Assembly (NCBI RefSeq): GCF_017948455.1
Contig: NZ_JAFFSU010000001.1
Location: 806,001 to 870,000, forward strand
Reading direction: 5' to 3'
DNA length: 64,000 nt
Origin: Streptomyces sp. GESEQ-4
Lineage (GTDB): Bacteria > Actinomycetota > Actinomycetes > Streptomycetales > Streptomycetaceae
Part shown: piece by piece, positions 20,244 to 42,492 of the stretch
Layout: the number at the start of each line of letters is the position of its first letter
Position numbering within the stretch: the first letter of the stretch is position 1
The notes under the pieces: generated by a model
The model's database searches: none
Told to the model about the DNA's origin: nothing
Seen by the model: only the letters and a program-made list of their open reading frames with translations
Made by a program: the position numbers and the translations under genes

Positions 20244-21443
20244 TCACCGGCCCACAGGATCGCCTTCGGCGCCGTCGGTCTGCGTGCGCAGCATCATGTG
20301 GCCGCCGTGATGCAGGGGTGTGTCCAGCTTCAATCGGGCTGCTTCGCCGCCTGTTCCGGCGTCGACGATGTGGACTTCGCCGTGGCCGCCGCGGGTGACG
20401 GCTATCCAGTCCGCGCCCGGTGAGGCGGCCACCGCGCGGCGTTGGACGCCTTCCCAGGGGGTGCCGCCGCGGCGGGGTGCGCCGTCCATGGCGGGGAGGG
20501 GGACGTGACGGGCGGTGTCGTCGGCGTCCAGGAGGATCAGTTCGTCGCCGTCCGGGTGGATACGGGTGAATGCGGTGTGGTGTCGGGCGAGGGTCAGCCG
20601 GAAGACCAGGCCGGGGCCGAGTCCGGTGACAGTCGTGCGGTTCGTCTCCAGGTCGTGGCGCCATGCCTGGTTGGTCCACTCCGGCCAGCGCAGCGCGTCT
20701 GCCGGGCCGCCCCGCAGCGTCGACCACAGCGCCCGTCGTCGTGGGTCGAGTCGTAGGTACCAGCCCCGGGCGGGCGAATCCCAGGGGATCGTCTGCTCCC
20801 GTACCAGTGCGTCGCCCTCGCGGCGTGCCCGGTGCACCCCGTCGCTCGTGGCCGCGAAGACGTGGCCGGAGCGCGGGTCCTGGGCGTCCCCGTGTCCGTC
20901 GTCCGGCAGCGGAAGGTGTGCGTGCGGCGTGACCGGCGGGCAGCCGGGCGGTGCCTCGAGCAGGTCGGCGAACCGATGGGCGGCCAGCGCGCCGGGTTCA
21001 CGGTGGCGCAGGACGACCAGCGGATCGCCATTGCCCAGGACCGTGACACCCGGTTCGCCGACGCGGGTGCGTACCCGGGCCGCGTCGCCCGTGGTGAGGT
21101 CGACGACCGTCAGCAGGTCCGACCACGGCTCGGCGTTCTCGCCCAGGCCGGCGGTGACGGCGACCCACCGTCCGGACGGGTCGCACGCGAGGTGCTCGGC
21201 CGGGGCGGCGACCGGGACCGCGGTTTCCACCAGTTCATCGCCGAAGGGGTCGAGCACCAGGAGCTCGCCCCTGCGGTCGTCGACGCAGGCCGCCCGCCCG
21301 CCGGGCAGCGCCAAGAACCCGGCGTGCTCGGAGAGGTGACGGCCGGTGAGGCGGCCCGTCTCGGTGCCGTCCGGCACGGTCAGTACGTGGACGGATCCCT
21401 CCATGTGGTCGGAGATGAGCAGTAGGGGAGAGGTGGCGGTCAT
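20244..21443 (-). CDS. Beta-propeller (WD40/YVTN-like) protein, possible zinc metallochaperone (AztD-like)
   Basis: 399 residues without a signal peptide. Repeating blades are visible, for example LISDHMEGSVHVLTVPDG, LACDPSGRWVAVTAGLG, LLTVVDLTTGDAARV, GHVFAATSDGVHR and GEVHIVDAGTGGEAARL. GGAGG lies 6 bases before ATG 21443; in-frame extensions upstream would run through the promoter. The gene is divergent from a FecB-type binding protein, with a Zur-like box in between. The known zinc chaperone AztD is a beta-propeller next to a zinc ABC system, so an AztD-like role is a reasonable but unproven inference. Other possibilities are a metal- or peptide-binding scaffold. Confidence 0.7.
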   Translation of the reverse strand: MTATSPLLLISDHMEGSVHVLTVPDGTETGRLTGRHLSEHAGFLALPGGRAACVDDRRGELLVLDPFGDELVETAVPVAAPAEHLACDPSGRWVAVTAGLGENAEPWSDLLTVVDLTTGDAARVRTRVGEPGVTVLGNGDPLVVLRHREPGALAAHRFADLLEAPPGCPPVTPHAHLPLPDDGHGDAQDPRSGHVFAATSDGVHRARREGDALVREQTIPWDSPARGWYLRLDPRRRALWSTLRGGPADALRWPEWTNQAWRHDLETNRTTVTGLGPGLVFRLTLARHHTAFTRIHPDGDELILLDADDTARHVPLPAMDGAPRRGGTPWEGVQRRAVAASPGADWIAVTRGGHGEVHIVDAGTGGEAARLKLDTPLHHGGHMMLRTQTDGAEGDPVGR

Positions 21444-21471
21444 CGATGCCTCCAGGCAATCGGGGTGATGT

Positions 21472-21486
21472 TGAAAACGATTATCA
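21472..21486. promoter_or_regulatory. Zur box between beta-propeller and FecB-type genes
   Basis: TGAAAACGATTATCA matches the actinobacterial Zur consensus TGAnAATnATTnTCA at 11 of 12 fixed positions (C instead of T at position 7). It sits 28 bases from the minus-strand ATG and 48 bases before the plus-strand ATG, so one site could repress both divergent genes when zinc is sufficient. Confidence 0.72.
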
Positions 21487-21534
21487 TGTATCTTCGGGTC
21501 GTTCCGGGGTCCCTGAGAAGAAGCGAGGGCATCG

Positions 21535-22512
21535 ATGCTGCGCTCACCGTCACGATTCGTCCGAAGCTGGATCACCGCAGCCCTGGTGGGTTCGGTGCTG
21601 GCCGGGTGCGGCTCGTCCACCGAACCGGCGAGCGAGAAGGCCGCCGCGGCGGGTCCGAAGACCGATGTCACCGTCGAACCCATCAAGGCGACACGGGAGT
21701 TGACCGACACGGGCGGCGTCAAGCTCTCCCTCAAGGAGGAGCCCAAGAGCATCGTCTGCCTGTTCGCGCTCTGCGACGACATCCTGACCGAGCTGGGCAT
21801 CGTCCCCACGGCCACGAACAGCGTGCTCCTCGCCCAACCCGGCTTCCTGGGGGAGCAGAAGGCGAAGGAGGCCGACGTCATCCCCGGCGGGTTCATCGCG
21901 CCCGAGGTGGAGGCGATCCTCTCCCACAAGCCCGATCTCGTGATCGGCCTCAAGGACACCCACGGCAAGCTGGCCCCGGCCCTGAAGGGCGCCACCACCT
22001 TCTGGCCCATGCAGCCCGAGACATGGGAGGACAGCGTGGGCTACCTGCGGGATGTCGCCGCGCTCACCGGCCGCACCGCCGAGGGAGAGAAGGCCGAGAA
22101 GACCTTCCGTACCAAGCTCGCCGAGGCCGAGAAGACCAGGAGCGACAAGACCGCGCTCATCATCTACGGCAGCGACGAGAACTTCGGCGTCGCCACGCCC
22201 GAGACGGACGTGGGCGCCAGCCTGTTCCCGAAGCTGGCCGACTACCCCTGGAAGTCCCGCGGCGTGGAGGGGAGTTACAGCCTCGAGGAGATCCTCGCGG
22301 CGGACGTGGACGTGCTGTTCGTCGAGACGTTGAGCTTCGGCGAGGCGGACGGCAAGCTGTCGGAGAAGCTGGCGAAGAACCCCCTGTGGAGCAAGATCCC
22401 GGCTGTCAGGAACGGGGACGTCCACGAGGTGAACTCCGAGGTATGGGCGAAGGGACGCGGTACCCGATCGCTGGGCATCATCCTCGATGAGGCCACGGCC
22501 GCGCTGCGGTGA
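21535..22512 (+). CDS. FecB/BtuF-type metallophore-binding lipoprotein
   Basis: 325 residues, cluster-A-III substrate-binding fold (periplasmic binding protein 2 family). The signal peptide ends in the lipobox VLAGC at Cys25. Family features include EPKSIVCLFALCDDILTELG, HKPDLVIGLKD and the C-terminal IPAVRNGDVHEVNSEVWAKGRG. Members capture siderophores, haem or cobalamin rather than bare Zn2+ (unlike ZnuA). It heads an importer operon with two FecCD permeases and an ATPase and is preceded by a Zur box. With the adjacent peptide cluster, I infer uptake of a zinc-loaded metallophore. Confidence 0.86.
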   Translation: MLRSPSRFVRSWITAALVGSVLAGCGSSTEPASEKAAAAGPKTDVTVEPIKATRELTDTGGVKLSLKEEPKSIVCLFALCDDILTELGIVPTATNSVLLAQPGFLGEQKAKEADVIPGGFIAPEVEAILSHKPDLVIGLKDTHGKLAPALKGATTFWPMQPETWEDSVGYLRDVAALTGRTAEGEKAEKTFRTKLAEAEKTRSDKTALIIYGSDENFGVATPETDVGASLFPKLADYPWKSRGVEGSYSLEEILAADVDVLFVETLSFGEADGKLSEKLAKNPLWSKIPAVRNGDVHEVNSEVWAKGRGTRSLGIILDEATAALR

Positions 22513-23678
22513 GCGCGCCCACCACGACGCCCATCACGGCAGGTGACCCGGCATCGGGCACACGGCGGTCCGTGCGCCCCACGGCAGTGTGGCAACTGCC
22601 CGTCGTGGTCGCCCTGTTGGTCGCCGCGTCGGCCTGTGCGCTGACCCTGGGCACGCCCTACGTCCCGCTGCACCAGTTGCCCGGTGCGGTGCTGGACGCG
22701 GACAGCACTCTCGCCGGGATCGTCGTCACCGAACTCCGCGTGCCCCGGCTGGTGCTGGCGCTCGTCGCCGGTGCCTGTCTGGGTGCGGCGGGGCTCGTGC
22801 TCCAGGAGGCGCTGCGCAACCCTCTGGCCGTCCCCGAGATGCTGGGCGTGTCGTCCGGGGCAGCGCTCGGAGTGGCAGCGCCGCTGGTGCTGGCCGTGTC
22901 TCTCCCCGCCGCCGTCCAGCCCCTGCCGGCCATCGGCGGGGCCGCGCTCGGCGGCGGACTCCCCCTGCGGGCCGCGGGGTGGGGGCGCAGCCCGTCCGCC
23001 GTACTGCTGACCGGCGCCGCGGTCGCCGCCGCCCTGCAGGCCGCGCTGCTCGTGCTGATGGTGATGGCCGACCAGCTCGACCTCCAGCTGATCTACCGCT
23101 ACTTGCTGGGTTCTCTGTCCGCCCGTACCTGGGACGACGTCACCGGGCTGTGGCCGTGGCTGCTCGTCGCGGTGCCCGCGCTCGTACTGTGCGCGCCGGT
23201 GCTGTCCGTGCTGCGGCTGGGGGACGAGGACGCCGAGGCACTGGGGGTGCGCGCTCAGCGGGCACGGCTGGCCGCGCTGGCCATCGCCGTCGTCCTGATC
23301 GCGCCCGTGACGGCCGTGTGCGGGCCGGTGGCCTGGGTCGGGTTCCTCGCTCCGCATCTGGCGCGGTGGTTCAACCCCGCGGCGGGTGCGGTGCGTTGGC
23401 TGCCCTGGTCTGCCGCGTGGGGCGCTGTCGTCGTAGCCGTCGCCGACGTACCGGCCCGGCTGGCGCTGGCGCCCGTGGAGACACCGGTCGGTGCCTGGAC
23501 GGCCCTGCTCGGCGTGCCCGCCGGGGTCGCCCTGCTCCGGTCGGCCGACCACAGACCGGCGGCCCGGCGCGAGGCGGCGGACGCGGCTGTCGCGGGCTCG
23601 GCGCCGCAAGGTGCCGAAGCGGTGCCTTCAGGCCCTTCCGGAGTTCCCGCCGACCACCATGAGAAGGAGACCCGGTGA
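22509..23678 (+). CDS. FecCD-family ABC transporter permease (first)
   Basis: 389 residues with about 8-10 helices. Hallmarks are TELRVPRLVLALVAGACLGAAG followed by GLVLQEALRNPLAVPEMLGVSSGA, and near the end VAWVGFLAPHLARW. These are the BtuC/FecC coupling and core motifs. The GTG start overlaps the binding-protein stop by 4 bases and the stop overlaps the next GTG, so the operon is translationally coupled. The hydrophilic C-terminal tail after LLRSADHRPAARR is longer than usual. It should form a heterodimeric channel with the next permease. Confidence 0.9.
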   Translation: MSAPTTTPITAGDPASGTRRSVRPTAVWQLPVVVALLVAASACALTLGTPYVPLHQLPGAVLDADSTLAGIVVTELRVPRLVLALVAGACLGAAGLVLQEALRNPLAVPEMLGVSSGAALGVAAPLVLAVSLPAAVQPLPAIGGAALGGGLPLRAAGWGRSPSAVLLTGAAVAAALQAALLVLMVMADQLDLQLIYRYLLGSLSARTWDDVTGLWPWLLVAVPALVLCAPVLSVLRLGDEDAEALGVRAQRARLAALAIAVVLIAPVTAVCGPVAWVGFLAPHLARWFNPAAGAVRWLPWSAAWGAVVVAVADVPARLALAPVETPVGAWTALLGVPAGVALLRSADHRPAARREAADAAVAGSAPQGAEAVPSGPSGVPADHHEKETR

Positions 23679-24682
23679 GCCGGCGCTTCGTGGTGCTCGC
23701 CGCACTCGTCGTCGTATGCGCCTGCGTGGAGCTGGTGGCCGGGCGGGGCATGTCCCCGTCCGTCGTCTGGGACGTCCTGGGCGGGGGCGGCGACAGGACG
23801 GAACGGCACATCCTGCTCCAACTCCGGCTGCCCCGGCTCCTGGTGGCCCTCGGTGCGGGGGCGTGCCTCGGCGTGGCGGGTCTGGTCCTGCAGTCGGCGC
23901 TGCGCAACCCGCTGGCCGGGCCCGAGGTGACGGGTGTGACTCCGGGTGCGGTGCTCGGGGCCGTCACCGCGACCAGCCTCGGACTCGCGGGGTGGGAATC
24001 GCCTCTCGCGGTGGTCGTCGCCGCGTGTGCGGGCGGCTGCGCCGGTGCGGCGCTGCTGTGGCTGCTCGCCGGGCGCGGCCGCAGCGACCCCGCGCAGACC
24101 GCCGTGCACGGGGTGCTGGTGTCGGCGGTGCTCGGCGGGCTCACGGCCATGGTGCTGCTCGTCGATCCGGGCGAGCTCGGCAGCGTCGTGCAGTGGCTCG
24201 TCGGCACGACAGAGGGCCGGGTGTGGCAGCACTGGCATCTGCTGTGGCCGTGGGCGCTGGCCTGGGGAGTGGCGGCGTGGCTGCTGACCGGGCCGCTGAC
24301 CCTGCTGCGCTGCGGGGACGAACTCGCCCTCGCCGCAGGGCTCTCCGTGCGGCGGGCCCGGACCCTCGCCCTGCTGTGCGCGGTGGCGCTGACGGCGGGT
24401 GCGGTGGCCGCCGTAGGGGCGCTGGGGTTCGTCGGGCTGCTCGTACCGCACCTCGCCGTGGCCGTCTTCGGGGCCGACCTGCGGGTGACGCTGCCCGGCG
24501 CCGCCCTGGTGGGCGCGGTGGTGGTGTGCGGGGCGGACGCGCTGGCACAGCTGTCCTCGCGGCTGCTGGCGGCCGCTCTGGACTCCGGTCGGCTCACGCT
24601 GCCGGTCGGGGCCCTCACCGCCTGCCTCGGGGCCGCGCTGCTGCTGGTCGTCGTACGCCGCGCGCCGAGCCGTACGTTCTGA
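23675..24682 (+). CDS. FecCD-family ABC transporter permease (second)
   Basis: 335 residues, with about nine to ten helices. It repeats the family motifs: LQLRLPRLLVALGAGACLGVAG, LVLQSALRNPLAGPEVTGVTPGA and AAVGALGFVGLLVPHLAVAVFG. The GTG start at 23675 overlaps the preceding stop. It is about the standard family length, shorter than the first permease. Together the two form the membrane domain of a metallophore importer whose ATPase is 20 bases downstream. Confidence 0.9.
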   Translation: MSRRFVVLAALVVVCACVELVAGRGMSPSVVWDVLGGGGDRTERHILLQLRLPRLLVALGAGACLGVAGLVLQSALRNPLAGPEVTGVTPGAVLGAVTATSLGLAGWESPLAVVVAACAGGCAGAALLWLLAGRGRSDPAQTAVHGVLVSAVLGGLTAMVLLVDPGELGSVVQWLVGTTEGRVWQHWHLLWPWALAWGVAAWLLTGPLTLLRCGDELALAAGLSVRRARTLALLCAVALTAGAVAAVGALGFVGLLVPHLAVAVFGADLRVTLPGAALVGAVVVCGADALAQLSSRLLAAALDSGRLTLPVGALTACLGAALLLVVVRRAPSRTF

Positions 24683-24702
24683 TGTCGACTTAAGGACAGA
24701 GC

Positions 24703-25524
24703 ATGACCGAGTCCGTGGGGATCCGCGTCGAGGGGGTCCACTTCGGCTACCCCGGCCAACCCGTGTTGCGGGGCGTCGACATGACCGTCGAGCCGGGTGA
24801 GCTGACCGCTCTCATCGGCCTCAACGGCTGCGGCAAGTCGACCCTGTTGCGGCTGGCCGCCGGGCTGCTGCGGCCGGACCAGGGGCGCGTGCTGCTCGGC
24901 GGGGACGACCTCGCCCGGCTGTCCCGGCGGGCCACCGCCCGACGGGTCGCGCTGCTGCACCAGTCGGCCCCGGCCGTACCCGGCATGACGGTGCGTCACC
25001 TCGTGCGGCAGGGGAGATACGCGGCGCGCGGCCCGCTCGGCATGCTGCGCGAGGGCGACGACGCCGTCGTACGCCGCGCACTGCGCGACGTCGGCGTGGA
25101 GCAGTGGGCTGAGCGGGACGTCGACGCCCTGTCCGGGGGAGAGCGGCAGCGAGTCCGGCTCGCGATGGCGCTCGCCCAGGACACTCGCGTCCTGCTGCTG
25201 GACGAGCCGACCACCTATCTGGACCTGCACCACCAGCTCGACGTGCTGCAGACGGTGGTCCGGCTGCGGGAGGAACGGGGCCTCACCGTCGTGATGGTGC
25301 TGCACGACCTGGCCCACGCCGCCCGGTTCGCCGAGCGGATCGTCGCGCTGCGCGACGGCCGCGTGGTGGCCGACGGGACACCCAAGGAGGTGGTCAGGCC
25401 CGGGCTGCTCGCGGACGTTCTCCGGGTGGCCGGCCGGGTCGGCCGGGACCCCGAAGGGGGCTGGCCCGTGTGTTACCCAGATCACCCTCTCCCAGCACTA
25501 GAATATGAAAATCATATTCATTAG
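24703..25524 (+). CDS. FecE/BtuD-type ABC transporter ATP-binding protein
   Basis: 273 residues. Walker A is GLNGCGKST (residues about 43-51), the signature LSGGERQRVRLAMALAQ, Walker B VLLLDEPTTYLDL, and the H-loop VVMVLHDLAHA. This is the usual FecE layout of metallophore importers. AAGGACAG precedes ATG 24703. The last codons, ending in EYENHIH, are encoded by DNA that also forms the Zur-box palindrome before the peptide gene, so the coding end and the operator overlap. Confidence 0.92.
   Translation: MTESVGIRVEGVHFGYPGQPVLRGVDMTVEPGELTALIGLNGCGKSTLLRLAAGLLRPDQGRVLLGGDDLARLSRRATARRVALLHQSAPAVPGMTVRHLVRQGRYAARGPLGMLREGDDAVVRRALRDVGVEQWAERDVDALSGGERQRVRLAMALAQDTRVLLLDEPTTYLDLHHQLDVLQTVVRLREERGLTVVMVLHDLAHAARFAERIVALRDGRVVADGTPKEVVRPGLLADVLRVAGRVGRDPEGGWPVCYPDHPLPALEYENHIH
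25501..25520. promoter_or_regulatory. Zur box before the peptide gene
   Basis: TGAAAATCATATTCA (25506-25520) matches 11 of 12 fixed positions of TGAnAATnATTnTCA. It lies in a perfect 8-3-8 palindrome GAATATGA-AAA-TCATATTC at 25501-25519. It overlaps the 3' end of the ATPase gene and ends 61 bases before the ATG of the 37-residue peptide gene. It is the most AT-rich spot in this region and the only evident operator for the downstream biosynthetic operon. Confidence 0.78.
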
Positions 25525-25581
25525 AGTCAGCGACGGCGCTCACCCGAACGCCGTATCTCCCCTGACGAACAAGGAGAGTTC

Positions 25582-25695
25582 ATGGACAACGAGCAGATCT
25601 TCACCCCGATCGCCGACCAGGGCCAGCTGGCCCACGCCTCGGCCTCCCACTCCAACGCTCTCGTCGAGAACCCCTTCGAGGACACCGAGGAGTAA
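25582..25695 (+). CDS. RiPP (azol(in)e/TOMM-type) precursor peptide candidate
   Basis: 37 residues, too short for most gene callers. AAGGAGAG precedes ATG 25582 by 6 bases and TAA ends at 25695. The peptide begins MDNEQIFTPIADQGQLA, a plausible leader, then HASASHSN at residues 18-25 and an acidic tail ending NPFEDTEE. There is no Cys; Ser20, Ser22 and Ser24, next to His18 and His23, are the candidate residues for oxazol(in)e formation. Immediately downstream lie genes for a leader-binding protein, a YcaO, a SagB-type dehydrogenase and a peptidase-like hydrolase. It is the inferred substrate of these enzymes; the core boundary and the final structure are unknown. The Zur box upstream implies induction in zinc starvation. 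Confidence 0.82.
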   Translation: MDNEQIFTPIADQGQLAHASASHSNALVENPFEDTEE

Positions 25696-25718
25696 GCGAG
25701 GGTCCAGCTCCCTCGACC

Positions 25719-25752
25719 GTGGGCCCGCCCGTCACTGTGCGGGCGGGCCCAC
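25719..25752 (+). terminator. Strong hairpin (attenuator) between precursor and enzyme genes
   Basis: Perfect 13-base arms GTGGGCCCGCCCG (25719-25731) and CGGGCGGGCCCAC (25740-25752) around an 8-base loop, 24 bases after the peptide stop. A smaller CGAGGG/CCCTCG hairpin precedes it. There is no T-run. It probably stops or pauses most transcripts, or protects the precursor mRNA, giving excess peptide over enzymes. Confidence 0.75.
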
Positions 25753-25785
25753 GCCGTACCAGGCCCTTCCCACAGGAGGATCGAC

Positions 25786-26622
25786 GTGTCCCGCAGCCAG
25801 CTCGCCCCCGGTGTCGAGGTCGTCGCCGTACCCGGGCGGGGTCTCGCCGTCCGTACGGCCGAGGGGGAGTTCCTCAGCGTCAGGACGAGCGACGCGGACG
25901 AGCACGCCCTGCTCTCCCGCCTCTCCGGTACGATGACCGAAGGCGGGCCGGACGACGAACTCGACCGCATCGTCCGGGCCTTCGAGGGCGCCGGGTACCT
26001 GGCGGACGGACCACGCAGCCCGCGATGGCCCGCCGACCGCCGGGACATCCGGCTGCTGGGCGACCCGGTCCTGACCGAGCAACTGGCCGCACTCCTGCGC
26101 GCACTGGGCGCCGAGCCGACGCGACCAGCGCCCGACGCCACGGCTGACGATCTGCCCGCCGACGAACCCGCCGCCGTCGTGTGGTGCCTCGACGGGCCCG
26201 TGCCCGACGGGCTGTGGGACGCCGCCGACCGGCTGCCCGAGCGCGGCGTCGCCTGGCTGCGCTGCCACCGCGAGGGCTGGCAGGCGTACGTCGAGCCCCT
26301 CGCCGCCACTCCCGGCGACGTCACCTCGGCACACGTCCGGGCCCGCCGGCTCGCCGCCACCCCCGCGCACCGCGAGCTGGCCGCCTACTGGAGCGGGCCC
26401 CGCACGTCCGGCGCGCCCGTCCACCTCACCGCCCCCGCCGCGGGGCTGCTGGCCGCCCTGCTCGCCGACGACCTGAGCCGGTGGGCCACCGGCGCACCCG
26501 ACACCGGCGACCTGCCCGCGCGGCGGCGGCTCCGGTGCGTCGACCTGCGCACGCTGACCGTCACCGAGCACCCCGTGCTGCCCGTGCCCGACGTCGCCCG
26601 GATACCTAAGAAGGCCGGATGA
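25786..26622 (+). CDS. TOMM leader-peptide-binding protein (RRE plus reduced E1/ThiF-like domain)
   Basis: 278 residues. Residues 1-70 resemble a PqqD-like RiPP recognition element: PGVEVVAVPGRGLAVRTAEG, FLSVRTSDADEHALLSRLSG and a helix ending AFEGAGYLAD. A Rossmann-like segment follows (RDIRLLGDPVLTEQLAALLRA), then REGWQAYVEPL, as in the E1-like C protein that presents the leader to a YcaO. The paired CxxC zinc motifs common in such proteins are absent, so it is a reduced form. AGGAGG precedes GTG 25786, and its stop overlaps the next start. Inferred role: bind the precursor leader and activate the YcaO. Confidence 0.72.
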   Translation: MSRSQLAPGVEVVAVPGRGLAVRTAEGEFLSVRTSDADEHALLSRLSGTMTEGGPDDELDRIVRAFEGAGYLADGPRSPRWPADRRDIRLLGDPVLTEQLAALLRALGAEPTRPAPDATADDLPADEPAAVVWCLDGPVPDGLWDAADRLPERGVAWLRCHREGWQAYVEPLAATPGDVTSAHVRARRLAATPAHRELAAYWSGPRTSGAPVHLTAPAAGLLAALLADDLSRWATGAPDTGDLPARRRLRCVDLRTLTVTEHPVLPVPDVARIPKKAG

Positions 26623-28100
26623 CGCCGTTCACCGTGGCCGTCGCAGGGCTCGCCACCGACGTCCGTCTCCCGGACGGCGACGGTCCCTTCCCGGCCGTCC
26701 TCATCCGCACGCCCTACGACCGCGGACGGCACCGGGCCGAGCTGCGCGGCTGGGCCCACCGCGGGTTCGCCGCGCTGGTCCAGGACGTACGGGGCCGGCA
26801 CGCGTCGCCGGGGGAGTGGCACCCGTACGCGAACGAGGCCGCCGACGGAGCGGCGACCGTCCGCTGGATTCGCGGGCAGTCATGGAGCGACGGGCGGTTG
26901 GTCGCCGTCGGCGCCTCCTACGCCGCCCACTGCGCCCTCGCCCTCGCGCTCGACGCGCCCACGGAGGCCCGGCCCGACGCCGTCATCGCCGCCGTGCCCG
27001 CGCTGGGCCACGCCGAGACGGCTCGCGAACCCTCTGGCGTGGAACGGCTGCTGGCCCGCGCCGGGTGGTGGGCGGCGCACGGCGACCGGCCGGACTCCGA
27101 CGAGAGCGCCCTGGGCAAGGCCCTCGCCGCGGACCCCGGTCTGCTCACCCATCTGCCGCTGACCGGCCTCCCCGAGCGGCTCGCCCGGAGCCTGCCCTCC
27201 TGGCCAGGCCTGTGGCGGCAACGCGAGCGCGGCCGGCTCGTCTCGGCGGCCGAGCACGCCGGGATGCCTCTGCTCGCGGTGGGCGGCCACCACGACCACT
27301 TCACCGACGACACCGTCGCGCTGTGGCGCCGCTGGGGCGGTCCGTCGGCGCGGCTGCTGCTGGGCCCCTGGGGACACGGCCTCGTCGCCGAGCCCGGCCC
27401 CGACGCCGAGCCCGCGCACCGGCTGAGTCTCGGCGAGCTCTACGTACGCTGGGCCCGCCGTGCCCTCGCCGGGGACCTCGGCCCCGGGCACCGTGGAGCG
27501 GTGGGCCTGGGCGGCAGCCCCCTGTGGATGCCCGCCGACACCGAAGGAGAGCCGCGTACGCAGAATGTACGGCTGCTGCACGGCTCCTCCTTCACGGCCG
27601 ATCCGGAACGCCCCGTGTCCTCCGAGGACCTGGCCGTCCCCACGGACGGTCACCCCGACCGCTGTCTGCTGGCCACCCCGCCACTGCCGCGTCCGCTGGA
27701 CGTGGTCGGCCCCGTAGAGGTGCGGCTGCGGGCCACCGCACACACTCCGTCCGCCGACTGGGCCGTCCGGCTCGTCGCCATCACGCCGGCCGGAGTGGCC
27801 CAGCGGCTCGCCGTCGGCGTCGTCCGACGCGACGAACCACCAGGTAGGGACGCCGAGTTCACCGTAGGACTCGGCCGGATCGCGCGGCGACTGGCCGCGG
27901 GCACCCGGCTCCGCCTGGAGATCGCCGGCCACCACTTCCCGGCCCACGCCCGCAACCCCCACACCGGCGACGACCCGGTCACGGCCACCCGGCTGCTGCC
28001 CTCCCGGCGTGAGGTCGACGCCGCGAGTGTGACGCTCCGGCTGCCCGTGCTCCGGTCCCGTCCCACCCCCACCGATCCCGCACAGGAGATCCTGCGATGA
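26619..28100 (+). CDS. CocE/NonD (peptidase S15-like) alpha/beta hydrolase
   Basis: 493 residues. The N-terminal alpha/beta domain has PFPAVLIRTPYDRGRH, VQDVRGRHASPGEWHPY and the nucleophile elbow VGASYAAH. The acid and His are likely in GGHHDHFTDD and LLGPWGHG. The C-terminal half is the jelly-roll of X-Pro dipeptidyl-peptidase and cocaine-esterase relatives. It is shorter than many family members. It is coupled by ATGA overlaps to both the leader-binding protein and the YcaO. In this setting it may trim the modified peptide (leader or tail); ester or amide hydrolysis of another substrate is also possible. Confidence 0.85.
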   Translation: MTPFTVAVAGLATDVRLPDGDGPFPAVLIRTPYDRGRHRAELRGWAHRGFAALVQDVRGRHASPGEWHPYANEAADGAATVRWIRGQSWSDGRLVAVGASYAAHCALALALDAPTEARPDAVIAAVPALGHAETAREPSGVERLLARAGWWAAHGDRPDSDESALGKALAADPGLLTHLPLTGLPERLARSLPSWPGLWRQRERGRLVSAAEHAGMPLLAVGGHHDHFTDDTVALWRRWGGPSARLLLGPWGHGLVAEPGPDAEPAHRLSLGELYVRWARRALAGDLGPGHRGAVGLGGSPLWMPADTEGEPRTQNVRLLHGSSFTADPERPVSSEDLAVPTDGHPDRCLLATPPLPRPLDVVGPVEVRLRATAHTPSADWAVRLVAITPAGVAQRLAVGVVRRDEPPGRDAEFTVGLGRIARRLAAGTRLRLEIAGHHFPAHARNPHTGDDPVTATRLLPSRREVDAASVTLRLPVLRSRPTPTDPAQEILR

Positions 28101-29476
28101 CGGCGCTGCCGCTGGAAACCCTCGTCGACCCCGTCTGCGGCATCGTCCGCGCGGTCAAGCCCGTGGAGCACCCCGAGGGCGCACCGCCCCGCTACACCGC
28201 GCTCACCGCGGAGATCGCCGACGCCCGGCGGCTCGGTCTGTGGCCCGCCGACCGGGTGTCGCTCGGCACCACCTTCGGTGACCCCGAGGGTGCCCGAACA
28301 GCCGCCATAGCGGAGGGGATCGAGCGGTACTGCGGCAACCGCGTGCCGCCGCCCGGCCGCCCCGACGCCCCCCTGCGCGCCACGGCCACCGACCTGGCCG
28401 AGAAGGGCCTGCGGCTGTACGGTCCGGGCGAGCTGCCGGCGTACGCCGACTGGCAGTACGCCCGGGAGAAGTTCCCCTATCGCCCCCTCACCGCCGACAC
28501 GCCGTCCCTGTGGACGCGCGGCACGGAACGGCTGCCTGGCGGCGGCACCGCCGAGGTCTGGGCGCCCGTCGCGCTCACCCACCTCAACTGGCGCCAGGGC
28601 GACCTGCGTTCGCTGCCGCGCACCCACCACCTCAACTACGCCGGGATCGCCACCGGGCAGGGTCTCGACGACGCCGTGGAACGCGGCCTGCTGGAGATCG
28701 TCGAACGCGACGCCCTCGAACTGTGGTGGCACCTGGACGGCCCGACCCGCGGCATCGACCCGGCGAGCGTGCCCGGCCTCGCCGACGACCTCGCCGGATC
28801 CGCGTTCGACGTCCATCTCGTCGAGATGCCCTCGGAGTTCGCCCCGTGCATGGCCGCGCTCGTCCACGACCGCCGGCTCGGCCTGTACGCCGCCGGGTTC
28901 GCCTGCAAGTACGACCCAGCCGAGGCCGCCCGCAAGGCCGTGCTCGAAGCCGTCCACACCTGGGTCTTCACCCAGGGGCTCACCGGCCCCGACGGCTGGG
29001 TGTTCCGGGCCGTCGAGGCAGGGCTGCTCGCCCGCGGACTGTATCTGGACCACCGCGAGGACGGCCGCTATCTCGACGTCTGTGGCGAACAGTTCGAGCA
29101 TGTACGGGACTTGGGCGCGCACGTCCAAGTGTGGCTGGACGAGCGGATGGCGTCCGAGGCCCGGCGGTTCACGGACCCCGCGCACGGGACTGTCTCCATC
29201 GACGCGGTCGAGCCCGGCAGCCGGGACCGGCTGGAACGTGCCCTCCACGAGGGCGGCCACCGCGTCATGACGTTCGACCTCACCACCGAGGACGTGGCCG
29301 AAACGGCGCTGCGCGTGGCCCGGGTCCTCGTCTCCGGCCTGATCCCCAACGCCCCTGCGGCTTTTGGGTACTTCGGCTCCCCGCGCCTCGGCGACGCCGC
29401 CGTCGCCCGTGGCTGGCGTACGACCGCGCCGAGCGCACCGGAGGACTTCACGCTGGCTCCTCCGCCGCACATGTGA
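28097..29476 (+). CDS. YcaO-domain azoline cyclodehydratase (TOMM D protein)
   Basis: 459 residues. ATP-binding motifs of YcaO are visible: GARTAAIAEGIERYCG (residues about 70-81) and GLDDAVERGLLEIVERDALE (about 190-208), followed by EAARKAVLEAVHTWVFTQG. The C-terminus ends in APPPHM, close to the Pro-rich tail typical of azoline-forming YcaO enzymes. These enzymes use ATP to cyclise Ser, Thr or Cys onto the preceding carbonyl. There is no fused E1 domain, fitting a separate partner at 25786. The precursor contains no Cys, so oxazolines from Ser are expected. Confidence 0.9.
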   Translation: MTALPLETLVDPVCGIVRAVKPVEHPEGAPPRYTALTAEIADARRLGLWPADRVSLGTTFGDPEGARTAAIAEGIERYCGNRVPPPGRPDAPLRATATDLAEKGLRLYGPGELPAYADWQYAREKFPYRPLTADTPSLWTRGTERLPGGGTAEVWAPVALTHLNWRQGDLRSLPRTHHLNYAGIATGQGLDDAVERGLLEIVERDALELWWHLDGPTRGIDPASVPGLADDLAGSAFDVHLVEMPSEFAPCMAALVHDRRLGLYAAGFACKYDPAEAARKAVLEAVHTWVFTQGLTGPDGWVFRAVEAGLLARGLYLDHREDGRYLDVCGEQFEHVRDLGAHVQVWLDERMASEARRFTDPAHGTVSIDAVEPGSRDRLERALHEGGHRVMTFDLTTEDVAETALRVARVLVSGLIPNAPAAFGYFGSPRLGDAAVARGWRTTAPSAPEDFTLAPPPHM

Positions 29477-29487
29477 GGGACCTCCCT

Positions 29488-30621
29488 GTGGACCTCACTC
29501 ATGAGCCCGTGGATCTCGTCACCGCCCTCGCCCGCGCCCGTTCCCCCGAGCGGCCCGGACCGGACACGCCCGCCGGGCCCGCCGTACGCCCGTGGCCGGG
29601 ACCCTCGCGTCCCCTGCCGGAGGCAGGCCCGGGGGAGCTGGACCTGGACCGGTTGCTCCGCCTCTCCCTGGCGGCCTCGGACGGCTCCGGGCGGCTGCGG
29701 CCCGCACCCTCGGCGGGCGCGCTGCACCCGGTGGACGCGGAACTCGTCGTAGGCACCGGCTGTCCGCTGCCGCCCGGGCGCTACGGCTACGACCCGCTGC
29801 GCCACCGCGTGCACCGACTCGGCAGGGAACCCGACGGCACCCTGCCCGGAGTGACGGTCGAACTGTCCGTCACCCCGCAGCGCACGGTCTCGCACTACGG
29901 CCACCGCGCCTGGCCGCTGATCCTGCTGGACACCGGGCACGTTGCCGCGGCGCTGTGGCTCGCAGATCACGCCTTGGGCATGGCAGAGCCGGTACTCCGT
30001 TTGGACGGGCTGCCCGAACATCCCCTGGCCGCACTGCACTTCGCCCCGCCTGAGAAGAGGGGCCACGTTTCTCAGTCCCAGGAGGTGGGCCCACCCATGG
30101 ACATGCCCGCTCCCCGCGAACTGCTGGCCCGCCGCAGCGCCCAGCCACCGCTCACCGGCGCCCCGCCCCCGGACGTTCTGCGTGCGGTGCTCGCAACAGC
30201 CCTCCAGGCGAGCGCCGGTGAGCTCGCCTGGTGTGCGGCCGTCGGCGAACCGCGGCCCGAACTGGTCGAGTTGGCGCCCGACGGCACACTGCGGCGGCTC
30301 GCGGCGGGGGAGGCCCGGCCGACGCTCGCCGTATGGGCCGCCGGCCAGGCATGGATCGCGGACGCGGGCGCCGTACTGCTCGCGTACCGGTGCCCGGCAG
30401 ACGCCGACGCTCCACGGATCCGCCGAGCGCACCTACGGGCCGGTTTCGCCGTTCACCTCGCCCATATGGCCGCCGTACGGCACGGGTCGGCCGCCCGCCC
30501 CGTCGGCTCCTGGCAGCAGGCGGACCTGGGCGCCGCGCTCGGCGCCCCACCGGGCCGGGACTGGATCGTCCACGGCCTGGCCCTCGGCACCACCCACTCC
30601 GACCAGGAGAAGACCTCGTGA
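29488..30621 (+). CDS. SagB-type flavin dehydrogenase (nitroreductase family)
   Basis: 377 residues from GTG 29488, with GAGGGA 7 bases upstream. The nitroreductase/ThcOx fold is shown by LRLSLAASDGSGRLRPAPSAGALHPVDAEL (FMN-binding PSAGALHP, residues about 75-83), PLPPGRYGYDP and a second similar half from about residue 210 with GAVLLAYRCPADAD. FMN-dependent SagB enzymes oxidise azolines to azoles. Sequence similarity is lower in the second half, where the usual GGFxG-like loop is not evident. It directly follows the YcaO, completing the cyclodehydratase/dehydrogenase set. Confidence 0.82.
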   Translation: MDLTHEPVDLVTALARARSPERPGPDTPAGPAVRPWPGPSRPLPEAGPGELDLDRLLRLSLAASDGSGRLRPAPSAGALHPVDAELVVGTGCPLPPGRYGYDPLRHRVHRLGREPDGTLPGVTVELSVTPQRTVSHYGHRAWPLILLDTGHVAAALWLADHALGMAEPVLRLDGLPEHPLAALHFAPPEKRGHVSQSQEVGPPMDMPAPRELLARRSAQPPLTGAPPPDVLRAVLATALQASAGELAWCAAVGEPRPELVELAPDGTLRRLAAGEARPTLAVWAAGQAWIADAGAVLLAYRCPADADAPRIRRAHLRAGFAVHLAHMAAVRHGSAARPVGSWQQADLGAALGAPPGRDWIVHGLALGTTHSDQEKTS

Positions 30622-32357
30622 TCGTCCACCCCGAGCTGCTCCGCGCCGCACGGCACGCACGGCGCCCCCTGCTCGCGGCCACCCTCCTCCAGGCGGCCGT
30701 CACCCTCACCCACCTTGCGCAGGCCGTACTCCTGGCGTTCGCCCTCGCCGACCTGGCCCGCGGGGACACGGACCGGCTCCCGCTGCTCCTCGGCGCGGTG
30801 CTCGGCGTCGTCGCCGCCCGCGCCGGACTCGGCAACTGGCAACGGCGCACCGCCACCCGCGCCGGGGCCAGGGTCAGGGCGGCTCTGCGGGACGAACTCC
30901 TCGCCCACCTCGGACGACTGGGGCCCGCCCACCTGACCACCGCACGCGCCGGGGCCGTCCGCACCACCCTCGTCGACGGGGTGGAGGGCGTCGACGCCTA
31001 CGTCTCCCGCTACCTGCCCCAGCTCCTGATCACCCTCACCGTGCCGCCCCTGCTGCTGGCGGCCTTGGCAATCATCGAACCGGCCGCCCTCCTCGCCCTC
31101 GTCCCCGCACTGCTGCTCGCCCTCGTCGGGCCGCGCGCCTGGGACCGGCTGCTGGCCCGTCGCGGCAAGGAACACTGGGACACCTACGAGGAACTGGGCG
31201 CCGACTACCTCGAGGCCCTGCAGGGCATGCCCGCCCTGCGGGCCGCCGGCGCCGTCGGGCGCACCCGGGAACGGCTGGAGAAGCGGTCGGCGGCGCTGCA
31301 CCGGGCGACCGTCGCCAAGTTGCGCGTGTCCCTCGTCGACACCGGCATCACCGATCTGGCCATCCAGGGCGGCACCGTGGCCGCCGCGCTCCTCGCCTGC
31401 TGGTCGGCCGTCACCGGATCCACCATGGCGACCGGCACCTACCTGGTGCTGCTCCTCGCCTCCGAGTGCTTCGGGCCGGTCCGCGACCTGGCCCGCGAAT
31501 GGCACGCCGGATACCTGGGTGTGTCGGCCGCGGACGGACTCGCGGCTCTGCGCACCGCCGAACCCGCCGTCCCCGACACGGGCACGGCTCCGGCGCACTG
31601 GCCGGGCCCGCCCGAACTGCGCTTCGAGGACGTCGAGTTCACCTACGACGGCGCCGAGACGCCCGCGCTCAGCCACGTCACCTTCACCGCCGAAGCGGGA
31701 CGTACGACCGCGATCGTCGGCCCGTCCGGAGCCGGCAAGTCCACACTCCTCGCCCTGCTCCTGCGCCACCACGACCCGCAAAGCGGCCGGATCACCCTCG
31801 ACGGCCGCGACGTGACCACGTACGCACTCGACTCGCTGCGGCGGGGCATCGCCGTCGTCTCCCAGGAGACGTACCTCTTCCACGCCACCATCGCCGACAA
31901 CCTGCGCCTGGCCCGGCCGGACGCCACGGACGACGCGCTGATGCGCGCGGCACGCACCGCCGGCATCCACGACGAGATCGCCGCCCTCCCCGACGGCTAC
32001 GCCACCGTCCTCGGCGAACGGGGTGCCACCCTGTCCGGCGGCCAGCGGCAGCGGCTCGCCCTCGCCCGAGCCCTGCTGGCCGACGCCCCGGTGCTCGTCC
32101 TCGACGAGGCCACCAGCGCGGTCGACGAACGCCGTGAGGCGGACATCATCCGTGAACTGCTGGACGCCGCGGGCGGCCGGACCGTCCTGGTGGTCGCCCA
32201 CCGGCTCGCCGCCGTCCGGCACGCCGACCGCATCGTCGTCCTCGACGGCGGACGCGTGGACGCCGTCGGCGAGCACACCACCCTCGTCGAAGCCGGGGGC
32301 GTCTACGCGGAGCTCGTCAAGGCGGGCCACGCTCACCAGGGAGGGCTCGCCGCATGA
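30618..32357 (+). CDS. ABC half-transporter, exporter fold (first of pair)
   Basis: 579 residues: six helices (residues about 15-300), then an ATPase domain with GPSGAGKST, LSGGQRQRLALARALLADAP and VLVLDEATSAVD. GTG 30618 overlaps the SagB stop. The membrane part, with RRGKEHWDTYEELGADYLEALQGM, resembles CydD and YbtP/IrtA-like half-transporters. Such heterodimers export peptides, or, despite the exporter fold, import metallophores (YbtPQ, IrtAB). In this operon it could secrete the modified peptide or release metal after uptake. Confidence 0.85.
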   Translation: MIVHPELLRAARHARRPLLAATLLQAAVTLTHLAQAVLLAFALADLARGDTDRLPLLLGAVLGVVAARAGLGNWQRRTATRAGARVRAALRDELLAHLGRLGPAHLTTARAGAVRTTLVDGVEGVDAYVSRYLPQLLITLTVPPLLLAALAIIEPAALLALVPALLLALVGPRAWDRLLARRGKEHWDTYEELGADYLEALQGMPALRAAGAVGRTRERLEKRSAALHRATVAKLRVSLVDTGITDLAIQGGTVAAALLACWSAVTGSTMATGTYLVLLLASECFGPVRDLAREWHAGYLGVSAADGLAALRTAEPAVPDTGTAPAHWPGPPELRFEDVEFTYDGAETPALSHVTFTAEAGRTTAIVGPSGAGKSTLLALLLRHHDPQSGRITLDGRDVTTYALDSLRRGIAVVSQETYLFHATIADNLRLARPDATDDALMRAARTAGIHDEIAALPDGYATVLGERGATLSGGQRQRLALARALLADAPVLVLDEATSAVDERREADIIRELLDAAGGRTVLVVAHRLAAVRHADRIVVLDGGRVDAVGEHTTLVEAGGVYAELVKAGHAHQGGLAA

Positions 32358-34096
32358 GCAGCAGCATCCGAACCGATCTGCCCGCGCGCGGCTCACTGCG
32401 CGCCCTGCTCCCCGCCCTCGCCGGGCACCGGATCATGATGGCCCGCACCTGCGGTGCCGCACTCATCGAACAAGGCTCACTCGTCACGTTGCTGACGCTG
32501 GCCGCGCACACCGTCGGAACCGCCGTCATCGAGGACCGCGCCCCCTCGGCCGGTACGGTCACCGCGCTCGTCGTCCTCGTCCTCGTACGCACCCTGATGA
32601 CCTGGCGCGAGATGGACCTCAGCCACGACCTGGCCTACCGGGTGCTGGCCGAACTGCGCGTGCGCGTCTTCGACGGGCTCGCCCGCAGCGCGCCCGCCCG
32701 CGTCGCCGGCCGGCGCAGCGGGGACCTGGCCGCCACCGCCATGGCCGACGTCGAGGCACTGGAGTTCTTCTACGCCCACACCACCGCTCAACTCCTCGCA
32801 TCCGGGGTGGTGTTCACCGGCGGGTCCGCTGTTCTGGCCACGGTGGAGCCGTGGTTGCTGGTGGCGGTGGTGCCGGTGGCCGCGCTGCTCGCCGTGGCGC
32901 CCTTCGCCGACGCAGGCGGACGCGCGGCGCGCGGGGCCCGCACCCGGGCGGCGGCCGCGAAGCTGTCGGCCGACACCGTGGAGACAGTCGACGGGTTGCG
33001 TGAGCTGCTCGCCTTCGGAGGGCTTGCCGAGCGGCGCGGCCGTCTCGCCGAACAGGGCCGGCAGGTGGGTGACGCCCAGCGGGCCGAAGCCACCTGGGAA
33101 GCCATGGCCGCCGCTGTCCGCGACCTTCTCATCGTCCTCGCGGTCCTCGGCGTGGTGGCTGCCGCGGCGCAGTCCGTGACCTCCGGGCGGCTGCACGGCG
33201 CATGGGCGCCGGCGGCGATGGCGCTGGCCCTGTCGGTGCTGGGCCCGGTCGCCGAATCGGCCAGGGCACTGAGCCAGGCAGTGGGACTGCGCGCCGCGGC
33301 CGCCCGGGTCGACGCGGCCCTGAAGGCCCCCGCTCTCGCCCCGCCGCCCGCCTCACCCCGCCCGCTCCCTTCCGGCCCGCTGGGCGTCCGGCTGCACCAG
33401 GTGAGCTTCGACTACGGAGGCAGGCCCGTGCTGGACGGAGTCGACCTGACGGTCCGCTCGGGACAGACCTTCGCACTGGTCGGCGCCTCGGGGGCCGGCA
33501 AGTCGACCTGCGCCCACCTGCTGGCCCGCTTCTGGGACCCGTCCGAGGGCACCGTCCACCTGGTGCCCGGCACCGGCGATCCCGTCGACGTACGTGACCT
33601 GGACGATGCCGAACTCCGCCGTGCCCTCGCCGTGGTGGGCCAGGACACCCCCCTCTTCCACGGCACCCTCGCCGACAACCTGCGGCTGGCCGCGCCCGAG
33701 GCGGACGACGACCTCCTCACCGAAACGGCCCGGCAGTGCGGCGTCGACCGGATCGCCCCCATGGACACACTCGTCGGCGAGCGCGGCTACACCCTCTCCG
33801 GCGGCCAGCGCGCCCGGATCGCTCTCGCACGCGCGTTGCTGGCCGAACCGAGCGTCCTCGTGCTCGACGAGACCACCGCCCACCTGGACAACGCGAGTGA
33901 CGCCCAACTCGCCACCGCTCTCAGCAAGGAAGGCCGCACCACGATCGTCATCGCCCACCGCCCCGCCACCATCCGCCGCGCCGACCGCATCGCCGTCCTC
34001 GAAGCCGGCCGCATCACCGAGGAAGGCACCTGGGACGAGCTCACCAGCCGCCCCGACAGCGCACTCAACCGCGTCCTGGCCGTCACTCCCCAGTGA
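32354..34096 (+). CDS. ABC half-transporter, exporter fold (second of pair)
   Basis: 580 residues: six helices, then an ATPase domain with GASGAGKST, LSGGQRARIALARALLAEPS and VLVLDETTAHLD. The signature and H-loop (IVIAHRPATIRRAD) are intact. Asp after the Walker B is followed by Glu, so this half should hydrolyse ATP. The ATG overlaps the preceding stop (ATGA). It is the last gene of the run that starts at the precursor, and likely forms a heterodimer with the preceding half-transporter. Confidence 0.86.
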   Translation: MSSSIRTDLPARGSLRALLPALAGHRIMMARTCGAALIEQGSLVTLLTLAAHTVGTAVIEDRAPSAGTVTALVVLVLVRTLMTWREMDLSHDLAYRVLAELRVRVFDGLARSAPARVAGRRSGDLAATAMADVEALEFFYAHTTAQLLASGVVFTGGSAVLATVEPWLLVAVVPVAALLAVAPFADAGGRAARGARTRAAAAKLSADTVETVDGLRELLAFGGLAERRGRLAEQGRQVGDAQRAEATWEAMAAAVRDLLIVLAVLGVVAAAAQSVTSGRLHGAWAPAAMALALSVLGPVAESARALSQAVGLRAAAARVDAALKAPALAPPPASPRPLPSGPLGVRLHQVSFDYGGRPVLDGVDLTVRSGQTFALVGASGAGKSTCAHLLARFWDPSEGTVHLVPGTGDPVDVRDLDDAELRRALAVVGQDTPLFHGTLADNLRLAAPEADDDLLTETARQCGVDRIAPMDTLVGERGYTLSGGQRARIALARALLAEPSVLVLDETTAHLDNASDAQLATALSKEGRTTIVIAHRPATIRRADRIAVLEAGRITEEGTWDELTSRPDSALNRVLAVTPQ

Positions 34097-36042: not shown

Positions 36043-36071
36043 AAATGATCGCGGCCCGATTGACTGCGCCC

Positions 36072-40868: not shown

Positions 40869-40886
40869 GGCAACCACCTCTCAGAT

Positions 40887-41446: not shown

Positions 41447-41550
41447 AATGGCTGGAAGGCCTTCTTGACATCCGTTTCCATCTAGCGTGGTGCTGACGCC
41501 GGGACGGTTCGAGCTCGGTGGACGTCCCCCTGGTTGCGGAGGAATCATTC

Positions 41551-42492
41551 ATGCCTGCGTCCTCACCCCGGCGCCTGGCGCCGCTCATCACCGGTGCTTC
41601 CCTGGTCCTGCTGGCCGGTTGCGGCGGCTCGTCCGACTCCGGCAGCGACACCGCCGCAGGGCAGAGCCCCGTATCCGCGTCCGCCGTCGCCGTGGTGGCC
41701 TCGACGAACGTCTACGGCGACATCGTCAAGCAGATAGGCGGCGGGAAGGTCGACATCACCTCGATCATCAGTGATCCCGACCAGGACCCGCACTCCTACG
41801 AGGCCAACACGCAGAACCAGTTGGCGCTGTCCAAGGCGAAGGTCGTCGTCGAGAACGGCGGCGGTTACGACGACTTCATCGACCGCATGCTGAAGAGCAG
41901 CGACAACTCGTCCGCCGAAGTGATCAACGCCGTCAAGGTCTCCGGGAAGACCGCCCCGGCGGGCGGGGAACTCAATGAGCACGTCTGGTACGACTTCCCC
42001 ACGACCGCCAAACTCGCCGACCGCATCGCGGCAGCCCTGACCAAGGCCGACCCGGACGATGCCGCCACCTTCACCAAGAACGCGGGCGCCTTCAAGGCGA
42101 AGCTGAAGCCGCTGGAGGCGAAGGAAGCGCGGATCAAGGCCGGCCACGGCGGCGAGCCGATCGCCATCACCGAGCCGGTGCCGCTGTACCTGACCGAGGC
42201 GAGCGGCCTGGTGAACAAGACGCCCGAGGAGTTCAGCGAAGCCATTGAGGAAGGCGACGACGTCTCCCCGAGGACCCTGCAGGAGACGCTGGCGCTGTTC
42301 ACCGACAAGAAGGTCCAGGCGCTGGTCTACAACGACCAGACCTCCGGTCCGCAGACCGAGAAGGTCGAGCAGGCGGCCAAGACCGCCGGGATTCCCGTCG
42401 TCCCCGTCACCGAGACCCTGCCCGAAGGCAAGGACTACATCGGCTGGATGACCGCCAACGTCGACGCGCTCGCGAGCGCGCTGGGCAAGTGA
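41551..42492 (+). CDS. znuA: ZnuA-type metal-binding lipoprotein
   Basis: 313 residues, cluster A-I substrate-binding fold (ZnuA/TroA). The signal peptide ends at the lipobox LLAGC (Cys24). Metal ligands expected for this family are His81 in DPDQDPHSYE and His144 in LNEHVWYD; His199 (AGHGGE) is a further candidate. A His-rich loop is absent. The C-terminal half has VYNDQTSGPQTEKVEQAAKT. GGAGG precedes ATG 41551 by about 9 bases. It is the binding protein of the ABC importer formed with the next two genes, so it likely delivers Zn2+ (possibly Mn2+). Confidence 0.88.
   Translation: MPASSPRRLAPLITGASLVLLAGCGGSSDSGSDTAAGQSPVSASAVAVVASTNVYGDIVKQIGGGKVDITSIISDPDQDPHSYEANTQNQLALSKAKVVVENGGGYDDFIDRMLKSSDNSSAEVINAVKVSGKTAPAGGELNEHVWYDFPTTAKLADRIAAALTKADPDDAATFTKNAGAFKAKLKPLEAKEARIKAGHGGEPIAITEPVPLYLTEASGLVNKTPEEFSEAIEEGDDVSPRTLQETLALFTDKKVQALVYNDQTSGPQTEKVEQAAKTAGIPVVPVTETLPEGKDYIGWMTANVDALASALGK

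What the first reader, a model, noticed from the sequence alone, without database searches (positions are those of the whole stretch)
20244..34096. Zinc-starvation-type azol(in)e RiPP cluster with its own uptake system
Seen: a 37-residue peptide gene, leader-binding RRE/E1-like protein, YcaO, SagB-type dehydrogenase, S15-like hydrolase and two exporter-fold ABC half-transporters follow a FecB-FecC-FecD-FecE importer. The only evident operators are two Zur-like boxes. Known: YcaO plus SagB make oxazoles and thiazoles; coelibactin shows that Streptomyces Zur can control a zincophore cluster. Inference: this makes a ribosomal, azole-containing zincophore taken up by the FecBCD-type system. I know of no described RiPP zincophore with this gene set.
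Basis: partly seen in the sequence, partly recalled or inferred. Interest (0 to 1): 0.93.

Follow-up and report, generated by a model that had tools for sequence, protein, structure and literature searches.

The report
Streptamidine gene cluster under zinc control
This is a streptamidine gene cluster, a known peptide pathway whose purpose is unknown, and it and its Streptomyces relatives carry DNA sites of the type bound by the zinc-starvation switch Zur, so the peptide is likely a zinc scavenger.

Summary
The genes are as described, but the gene set is not new. The 37-aa precursor passes the streptamidine model NF040714 (65.9 bits, cut-off 40), and the order is the published ami cluster F1-F4/A/B/C/D/E/T1/T2 (PMC8442711). 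That family makes a six-membered amidine, not azoles. Its discoverers detected no metal binding (zinc included), no metal-starvation phenotype and no antibiotic activity, and left its role unknown.

The Zur observation is right and stronger than claimed. Only six distinct places in the 9.24-Mb genome lie within 2 mismatches of the Zur box; two are these, and three of the other four stand at zinc genes. A box within 4 mismatches lies upstream of amiA in 50 of 50 same-genus loci (background 7 of 4076 windows), and one upstream of amiF1 in 48 of 50. Sister families have weaker, similarly placed boxes, with exceptions. The divergent gene 20244-21443 occurs in all 50 cluster-bearing genomes and in 7 of 342 others; its modelled fold is nearest to AztD zinc chaperones, without sequence homology.

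Verdict: a Zur-linked streptamidine cluster; a zincophore role is the best reading, not shown. The searches made found no report of this link.

The parts
20244..21443 (-). amiX-position gene: 399-aa protein modelled as a beta-propeller, nearest fold AztD
   Evidence: Model pLDDT 89.8; PDB comparison; present in 50 of 50 precursor-positive genomes; no Pfam or NCBIfam family
21472..21486 (.). Zur-type box between amiX and amiF1, TGAAAACGATTATCA
   Evidence: a site within 4 mismatches upstream of amiF1 in 47 of 49 loci and in L098
21535..22512 (+). amiF1, lipoprotein-like substrate-binding protein of metal-complex type
   Evidence: PF01497 62.1 bits; PDB relatives; lipobox seen by eye
22509..23678 (+). 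amiF2, FecCD-type permease
   Evidence: PF01032 225.4 bits
23675..24682 (+). amiF3, FecCD-type permease
   Evidence: PF01032 237.7 bits
24703..25524 (+). amiF4, importer ATPase
   Evidence: PF00005 118.1 bits
25506..25520 (.). Zur-type box upstream of amiA, TGAAAATCATATTCA; overlaps the last codons of amiF4
   Evidence: Best match in the genome; within 4 mismatches in 49 of 49 loci and in L098; overlap with amiF4
25582..25695 (+). amiA, 37-aa streptamidine-family precursor
   Evidence: NF040714 65.9 bits, cut-off 40
25633..25650 (+). Predicted core peptide HASASH within amiA
   Evidence: Alignment to the published core HLSATH (PMC8442711) and to 39 distinct precursors
25786..26622 (+). amiB, E1-like/leader-binding partner
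   Evidence: TIGR03882 23.3 bits, below cut-off; role by homology to published AmiB
26619..28100 (+). amiC, S15/CocE-type hydrolase, predicted leader removal
   Evidence: PF02129 121.9 bits; TIGR00976 188.3 bits over cut-off 66.3
28097..29476 (+). amiD, YcaO
   Evidence: PF02624 137.9 bits; profile relatives MusD, TruD, LynD
29473..30621 (+). amiE, SagB-like dehydrogenase
   Evidence: PF00881 31.3 bits; TIGR03605 42.2 bits, below cut-off 78.4
30618..32357 (+). amiT1, exporter-type ABC half-transporter
   Evidence: PF00664 and PF00005
32354..34096 (+). amiT2, exporter-type ABC half-transporter
   Evidence: PF00664 and PF00005

Best explanation
The locus is a streptamidine-family (ami) peptide cluster with two conserved Zur-type boxes; it is predicted to be silenced by Zur when zinc is plentiful, and its amidine peptide likely scavenges zinc. 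Shown here: family membership, gene order, the boxes and their conservation, and the companionship of AmiX with the cluster. Inferred: under zinc starvation Zur would leave both boxes. AmiB and the YcaO AmiD (with AmiE) would act on the HASASH core, and AmiC would free His1, whose amine closes a six-membered amidine on the carbonyl of residue 2 (chemistry known for streptamidine, assumed here). AmiT1/T2 would export the peptide. Its two invariant His side chains (plus Asp2 in the commonest natural core, HDSASH) would hold zinc, and the metal-complex-type importer AmiF1-F4 would bring it back. AmiX, whose fold is nearest to the zinc chaperone AztD but which shows no signal peptide by eye, would receive or release metal or peptide, probably in the cytoplasm.
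Against: PMC8442711: no metal binding by streptamidine (zinc included), CAS negative, amiD mutant unchanged under metal starvation. Streptamidine was made in amounts in ordinary production cultures, not expected of a tightly zinc-repressed cluster (media zinc unknown to me). The follower of AmiA is as invariant as the His residues, so these may serve recognition. Motif-B relatives with Zur-like boxes lack the two-His core. L109 has no box and L210 only a 5-mismatch one. AmiX has no sequence homology to AztD, and by Foldseek E-value AztD barely leads other propellers (3.9e-11 against 7.4e-11). No promoter hexamers were recognised at the boxes. Zur binding and expression were not testable here.
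Confidence: 0.6

Rival explanations
1. Zur-controlled but not a zincophore: the peptide is a zinc-starvation signal, a modulator of a metalloenzyme or a competition molecule, and AmiF1-F4 recaptures the free peptide.
For: Published negative metal binding and metal-starvation tests, authors favour signalling or development (PMC8442711). Motif-B relatives share Zur-like boxes but not the two-His core.
Against: Importer, exporter and Zur box together are the usual layout of a metallophore locus (established knowledge); AmiF1 relatives bind metal complexes. The published test used only the Leu2 core; no antibacterial activity was seen.
Confidence: 0.27
2. One reading: the mature product is an azole zincophore, and streptamidine is a breakdown product of it.
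For: AmiE (SagB-like) is essential though streptamidine carries no oxidation, and oxazoline-like shunts appear in its mutant (PMC8442711). AmiD relatives in the PDB are azoline-forming enzymes.
Against: Streptamidine is the major product in two hosts and has unmodified Ser/Thr. Azole-enzyme models are below cut-off.
Confidence: 0.06
3. An iron siderophore locus, as the FecBCDE names suggest.
For: AmiF1 relatives are mostly iron-siderophore binders.
Against: No iron box within 8 mismatches of 19 better than chance in 49 loci (best 8-10, consensus recalled); Zur-type boxes instead; CAS assay negative.
Confidence: 0.03
4. The boxes are not Zur sites: they are kept for coding or for another regulator, and the cluster is unrelated to zinc.
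For: The amiA box overlaps the 3' end of amiF4 in 46 of 48 loci, in one frame in 39.
Against: Seven loci end amiF4 at the box's own TGA and two end before it; L070 lacks amiF1-F4 and keeps box-like sites; the amiF1 box is non-coding; the same motif stands at ZnuA, L33 and the Azt operon in this genome.
Confidence: 0.04

Closest known systems
Streptamidine (ami) cluster of Streptomyces albidoflavus J1074 (PMC8442711)
   Same: Same gene order and precursor family; core HxSA[ST]H and the SNALVENPF follower
   Different: Core HASASH instead of HLSATH; Zur boxes and an AztD-like fold of the amiX-position gene are not mentioned in the paper (term search; parts 1-3 of 5 read)
Coelibactin, the Zur-controlled zincophore cluster of S. 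coelicolor (recalled; named in PMC12161575 passages)
   Same: Zur control of a specialised metabolite cluster
   Different: Non-ribosomal; different genes
[S,S]-EDDS genes of Amycolatopsis japonicum, found through Zur sites (cited in PMC12161575)
   Same: Zur sites used to recognise a zinc-linked chelator pathway
   Different: Small non-peptide chelator
Methanobactin (recalled)
   Same: Ribosomal peptide metallophore
   Different: Copper, other enzymes and rings
AztABCD zinc importer with the chaperone AztD (PMC6689063)
   Same: AmiX fold is nearest to AztD; both lie by Zur-type boxes
   Different: AmiX has no sequence homology to AztD and no signal peptide by eye
Klebsazolicin and bottromycin
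   Same: YcaO-made amidine rings (PMC8442711)
   Different: Klebsazolicin blocks the ribosome tunnel; no zinc link known to me

Membership tests
Streptamidine (ami) RiPP cluster | Precursor of the AmiA family (NF040714) | tested here: met
   65.9 bits, cut-off 40; 64.6 bits in the genome search
Streptamidine (ami) RiPP cluster | Gene order amiF1-F4, A, B, C, D, E, T1, T2 | tested here: met
   against PMC8442711
Streptamidine (ami) RiPP cluster | Six-membered amidine between His1 amine and carbonyl of residue 2 | not testable with these tools
   Core HASASH keeps His1, Ser3 and His6
Azol(in)e RiPP (LAP/TOMM) | Curated azole-enzyme models TIGR03604, TIGR03605, TIGR03882 | tested here: not met
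   197, 42.2 and 23.3 bits against cut-offs 219.25, 78.4 and 36.9
Zur regulon | Zur-type operator upstream | tested here: met
   11 and 10 of 11 defined positions; genome-wide and family-wide tests
Zur regulon | Zur binds and represses with zinc | not testable with these tools
   Needs gel shift and expression data
Zincophore | Product binds zinc and restores zinc uptake | not testable with these tools
   Published tests on streptamidine were negative (PMC8442711)
Zincophore | Dedicated importer of metal-complex type beside the biosynthetic genes | tested here: met
   PF01497/PF01032/PF00005; PDB relatives
AztD family (for AmiX) | AztD sequence model NF038015 or detectable homology | tested here: not met
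   No NCBIfam hit at E 0.1; in the own genome NF038015 finds two other places, not AmiX; hhalign partial, E 0.014
AztD family (for AmiX) | Propeller fold of AztD type | tested here: met
AztD family (for AmiX) | Three-His zinc site in the pore | tested here: inconclusive
Iron siderophore locus | DmdR1/IdeR iron box (consensus recalled) | tested here: not met
   Best 8-10 mismatches of 19 in the 200 bases upstream of amiA in 49 loci

The most novel reading that the evidence does not exclude
Streptamidines are ribosomal zincophores: amidine peptides with a two-histidine core, made by actinobacteria under Zur control, re-imported whole by AmiF1-F4 and unloaded inside the cell by AmiX, an AztD-like zinc-handling propeller. 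The motif-B relatives, with two YcaOs and other cores, would be a second chemistry in the same zinc-starvation programme.
Probability: 0.45. Interest if true: 0.87.

Novelty: new variant of a known kind. Interest (0 to 1): 0.72.

Why it matters
The discoverers of streptamidine left its role unknown after metal and antibiotic tests failed. Placing the family by the Zur box says when it is probably made, and so how to test it: severe zinc starvation, in strains without the other zinc importers, and with the Asp2 and Ala2 cores that were not tested. If it holds, zincophores gain a ribosomal class. The box also offers another reading of one published result: it lies at the 3' end of amiF4, so deleting amiF1-F4 could stop production by removing the amiA control region rather than a biosynthetic function (inference; the ends of the J1074 deletion and its sequence were not seen).

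Tried and rejected
Rejected: azole product (published amidine; models under cut-off); iron control (no iron box); coding constraint as the whole cause of the amiA box; AmiX as an AztD family member, only the fold stands.

Led nowhere: the AmiF1 structure prediction gave pLDDT 58.6 and was not searched. AmiB found no PDB relative by sequence, nor did AmiX reliably (best E 0.6). The sigma-70 scans found no promoter at the boxes. Coordinates of the AmiX model were not available, so the place of its His residues is open.

Searches behind 'no report of the Zur link found': zincophore+RiPP+Zur (one paper), YcaO+zinc uptake regulator (none), streptamidine (12 papers), streptamidine+zinc (two), Zur+Streptomyces+zincophore+biosynthetic gene cluster (four), Zur+Streptomyces+regulon+zinc+coelibactin, ribosomally synthesized+zincophore+zinc (six), Zur+lanthipeptide+zinc (15 listed), YcaO+Zur (four). 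Listings only, except PMC8442711 (parts 1-3 of 5 of the main section, and a term search) and passages of PMC5472717, PMC6689063, PMC7463823 and PMC12161575. Subscription papers and preprints are not held.

Rows dropped: L098 was missed by the pattern and treated, so counts of 49 leave it out; L107-L109 were left out as another family; 4 of 80 named loci (L128, L151, L177, L186) gave no precursor and are not; its amiF1-region count covers 73 loci, 69 with a site within 4 mismatches. In one search representatives come from the 48 loci with an AmiX match.

Full report
What is there. The reading of the genes is right. The 37-aa precursor at 25582-25695 hits NF040714, 'streptamidine family RiPP', at 65.9 bits over a cut-off of 40. 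PMC8442711 (parts 1-3 of 5 of its main section read; term search over the main text) describes this order, amiF1-F4, A, B, C, D, E, T1, T2, in over 90 clusters, and characterises S. albidoflavus J1074: core HLSATH, a six-membered amidine between the His1 amine and the Leu2 carbonyl, Ser and Thr unmodified. So the gene set is described and the known chemistry is not azole. The core here is HASASH.

The genus. 

The boxes. A search of the whole genome with TGAAAATCATTTTCA gives the amiA box as the only place within 1 mismatch; six distinct places lie within 2. The four outside ami stand by ZnuA, by L33 with S14 and a CobW protein, by an ABC-3 permease, and by an SBP_bac_5 gene with a PucR-type regulator (the last is not an evident zinc gene). 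Downstream of the ABC-3 permease lies a true AztD, 483.7 bits over a cut-off of 400. The published S. coelicolor motif tGaNNatSatNNtCa (PMC5472717, passages) is met at 11 of 11 defined positions by the amiA box and 10 of 11 by the amiF1 box.

Conservation in the genus. NF040714 rings in 50 of 392 same-genus genomes and in 3 of 396 drawn across the phylum. Stretches were taken for the 49 besides the window. A box within 4 mismatches lies in the 160 bases before amiA, at -65 to -96, in 49 of 49 loci (24, 16, 7 and 2 at 1, 2, 3 and 4 mismatches) and in L098 (1 mismatch). Background windows of about the same size reach 4 mismatches in 7 of 4076. A second site within 4 mismatches lies upstream of amiF1 in 47 of 49 and in L098; the two without are L063 (contig end) and L070 (amiF1-F4 absent). 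Kinship: among 39 representatives under 90% AmiX identity the amiA counts are 19, 11, 7 and 2; among 19 under 80% they are 8, 6, 4 and 1; in the amiF1 region 38 of 39 and 19 of 19 are within 4. A PWM from six own-genome sites outside ami ranks the amiA and amiF1 boxes as the two best of the locus in 46 of 49; the exceptions are L060 (a stronger extra site), L063 and L070. Of 80 named loci, 76 could be parsed; all 76 have the amiA box within 4 mismatches, the reversed control never under 5, and 69 of 73 have a site in the amiF1 region. Some of these are the same species as in the unnamed set.

Beyond the genus. NF040714 rings in 5 of 186 genomes of another family, f5. In 6 of its 7 loci (5 genomes) the best site of the locus lies before amiA at -83 to -100, beside a divergent AmiX; these sites are weaker (12.7-15.6 bits of 32). 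L109, the third copy in one genome and at a contig end, has none. The two-YcaO motif-B relatives (NF040715, 7 of 394 genomes) have the site before amiA ranked first in 4 of 6 loci, second in L209 and fourth in L214; the seventh, L210, has 5 mismatches against 6 for the control. L209 also has a His-rich protein behind a 2-mismatch box, a heavy-metal P-type ATPase and an ArsR regulator.

Not simply coding. The amiA box overlaps the end of amiF4 in 46 of 48 loci. In 39 the frame runs through it, in 7 amiF4 ends at the TGA of the box itself, in 2 it ends before, and L070 has no amiF genes there and keeps box-like sites at -78 and -168.

Core. In 39 distinct precursors of two families positions 1, 3 and 6 are His, Ser and His throughout, while position 2 is Leu, Asp, Ala, Glu or Gln. 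HDSASH is the commonest core among named loci, 41 of 76. The published binding test used the Leu2 form. The SNALVENPF follower is equally invariant, so this does not prove a metal site.

Weighing. Control by Zur is very likely (my estimate 0.93). That the product acquires zinc is the best reading (about 0.6) against published negative tests. These may reflect the assay, redundant importers (this genome has ZnuA- and Azt-type genes) or the core tested; or the role is signalling (0.27). The azole reading is kept at 0.06 because AmiE is essential without an oxidation in streptamidine.

Noticed in passing
window 41518-43370, + strand: A ZnuA-type substrate-binding protein (PF01297, 189.4 bits) followed by an ABC ATPase, 7 kb downstream of ami; no Zur-type box within 3 mismatches lies there. 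Its metal is open.
   Followed up: partly
window 38658-40877, - strand: Heavy-metal P-type ATPase (TIGR01525, 553.7 bits) between ami and that importer.
   Followed up: partly
window 36045-37901, + strand: Flavin monooxygenase resembling pentalenolactone D synthase (765 bits, under cut-off 1100), after a TPR protein.
   Followed up: no
L209:16527-16924: Small His-rich protein behind a 2-mismatch Zur-type box beside a motif-B streptamidine-like cluster; no Pfam or NCBIfam family.
   Followed up: partly
L107, L108, L109 (one genome, G139): Three copies of the precursor locus in one 3.5-Mb genome; two have a Zur-type box, the third, at a contig end, has none.
   Followed up: partly
L070 (G509): A cluster without amiF1-F4 in which amiX and amiA are directly divergent and share box-like sites.
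   Followed up: partly
G000:C7:81131 (L008): Zur-type box (2 mismatches) upstream of an SBP_bac_5 substrate-binding protein: a possible further zinc-linked importer.
   Followed up: no
G000:C23:211872-212894 (L217): A divergent AztD-like paralogue (79.6 bits, under cut-off 400) upstream of the true AztD in the same region; its relatives pair likewise in other genomes.
   Followed up: partly
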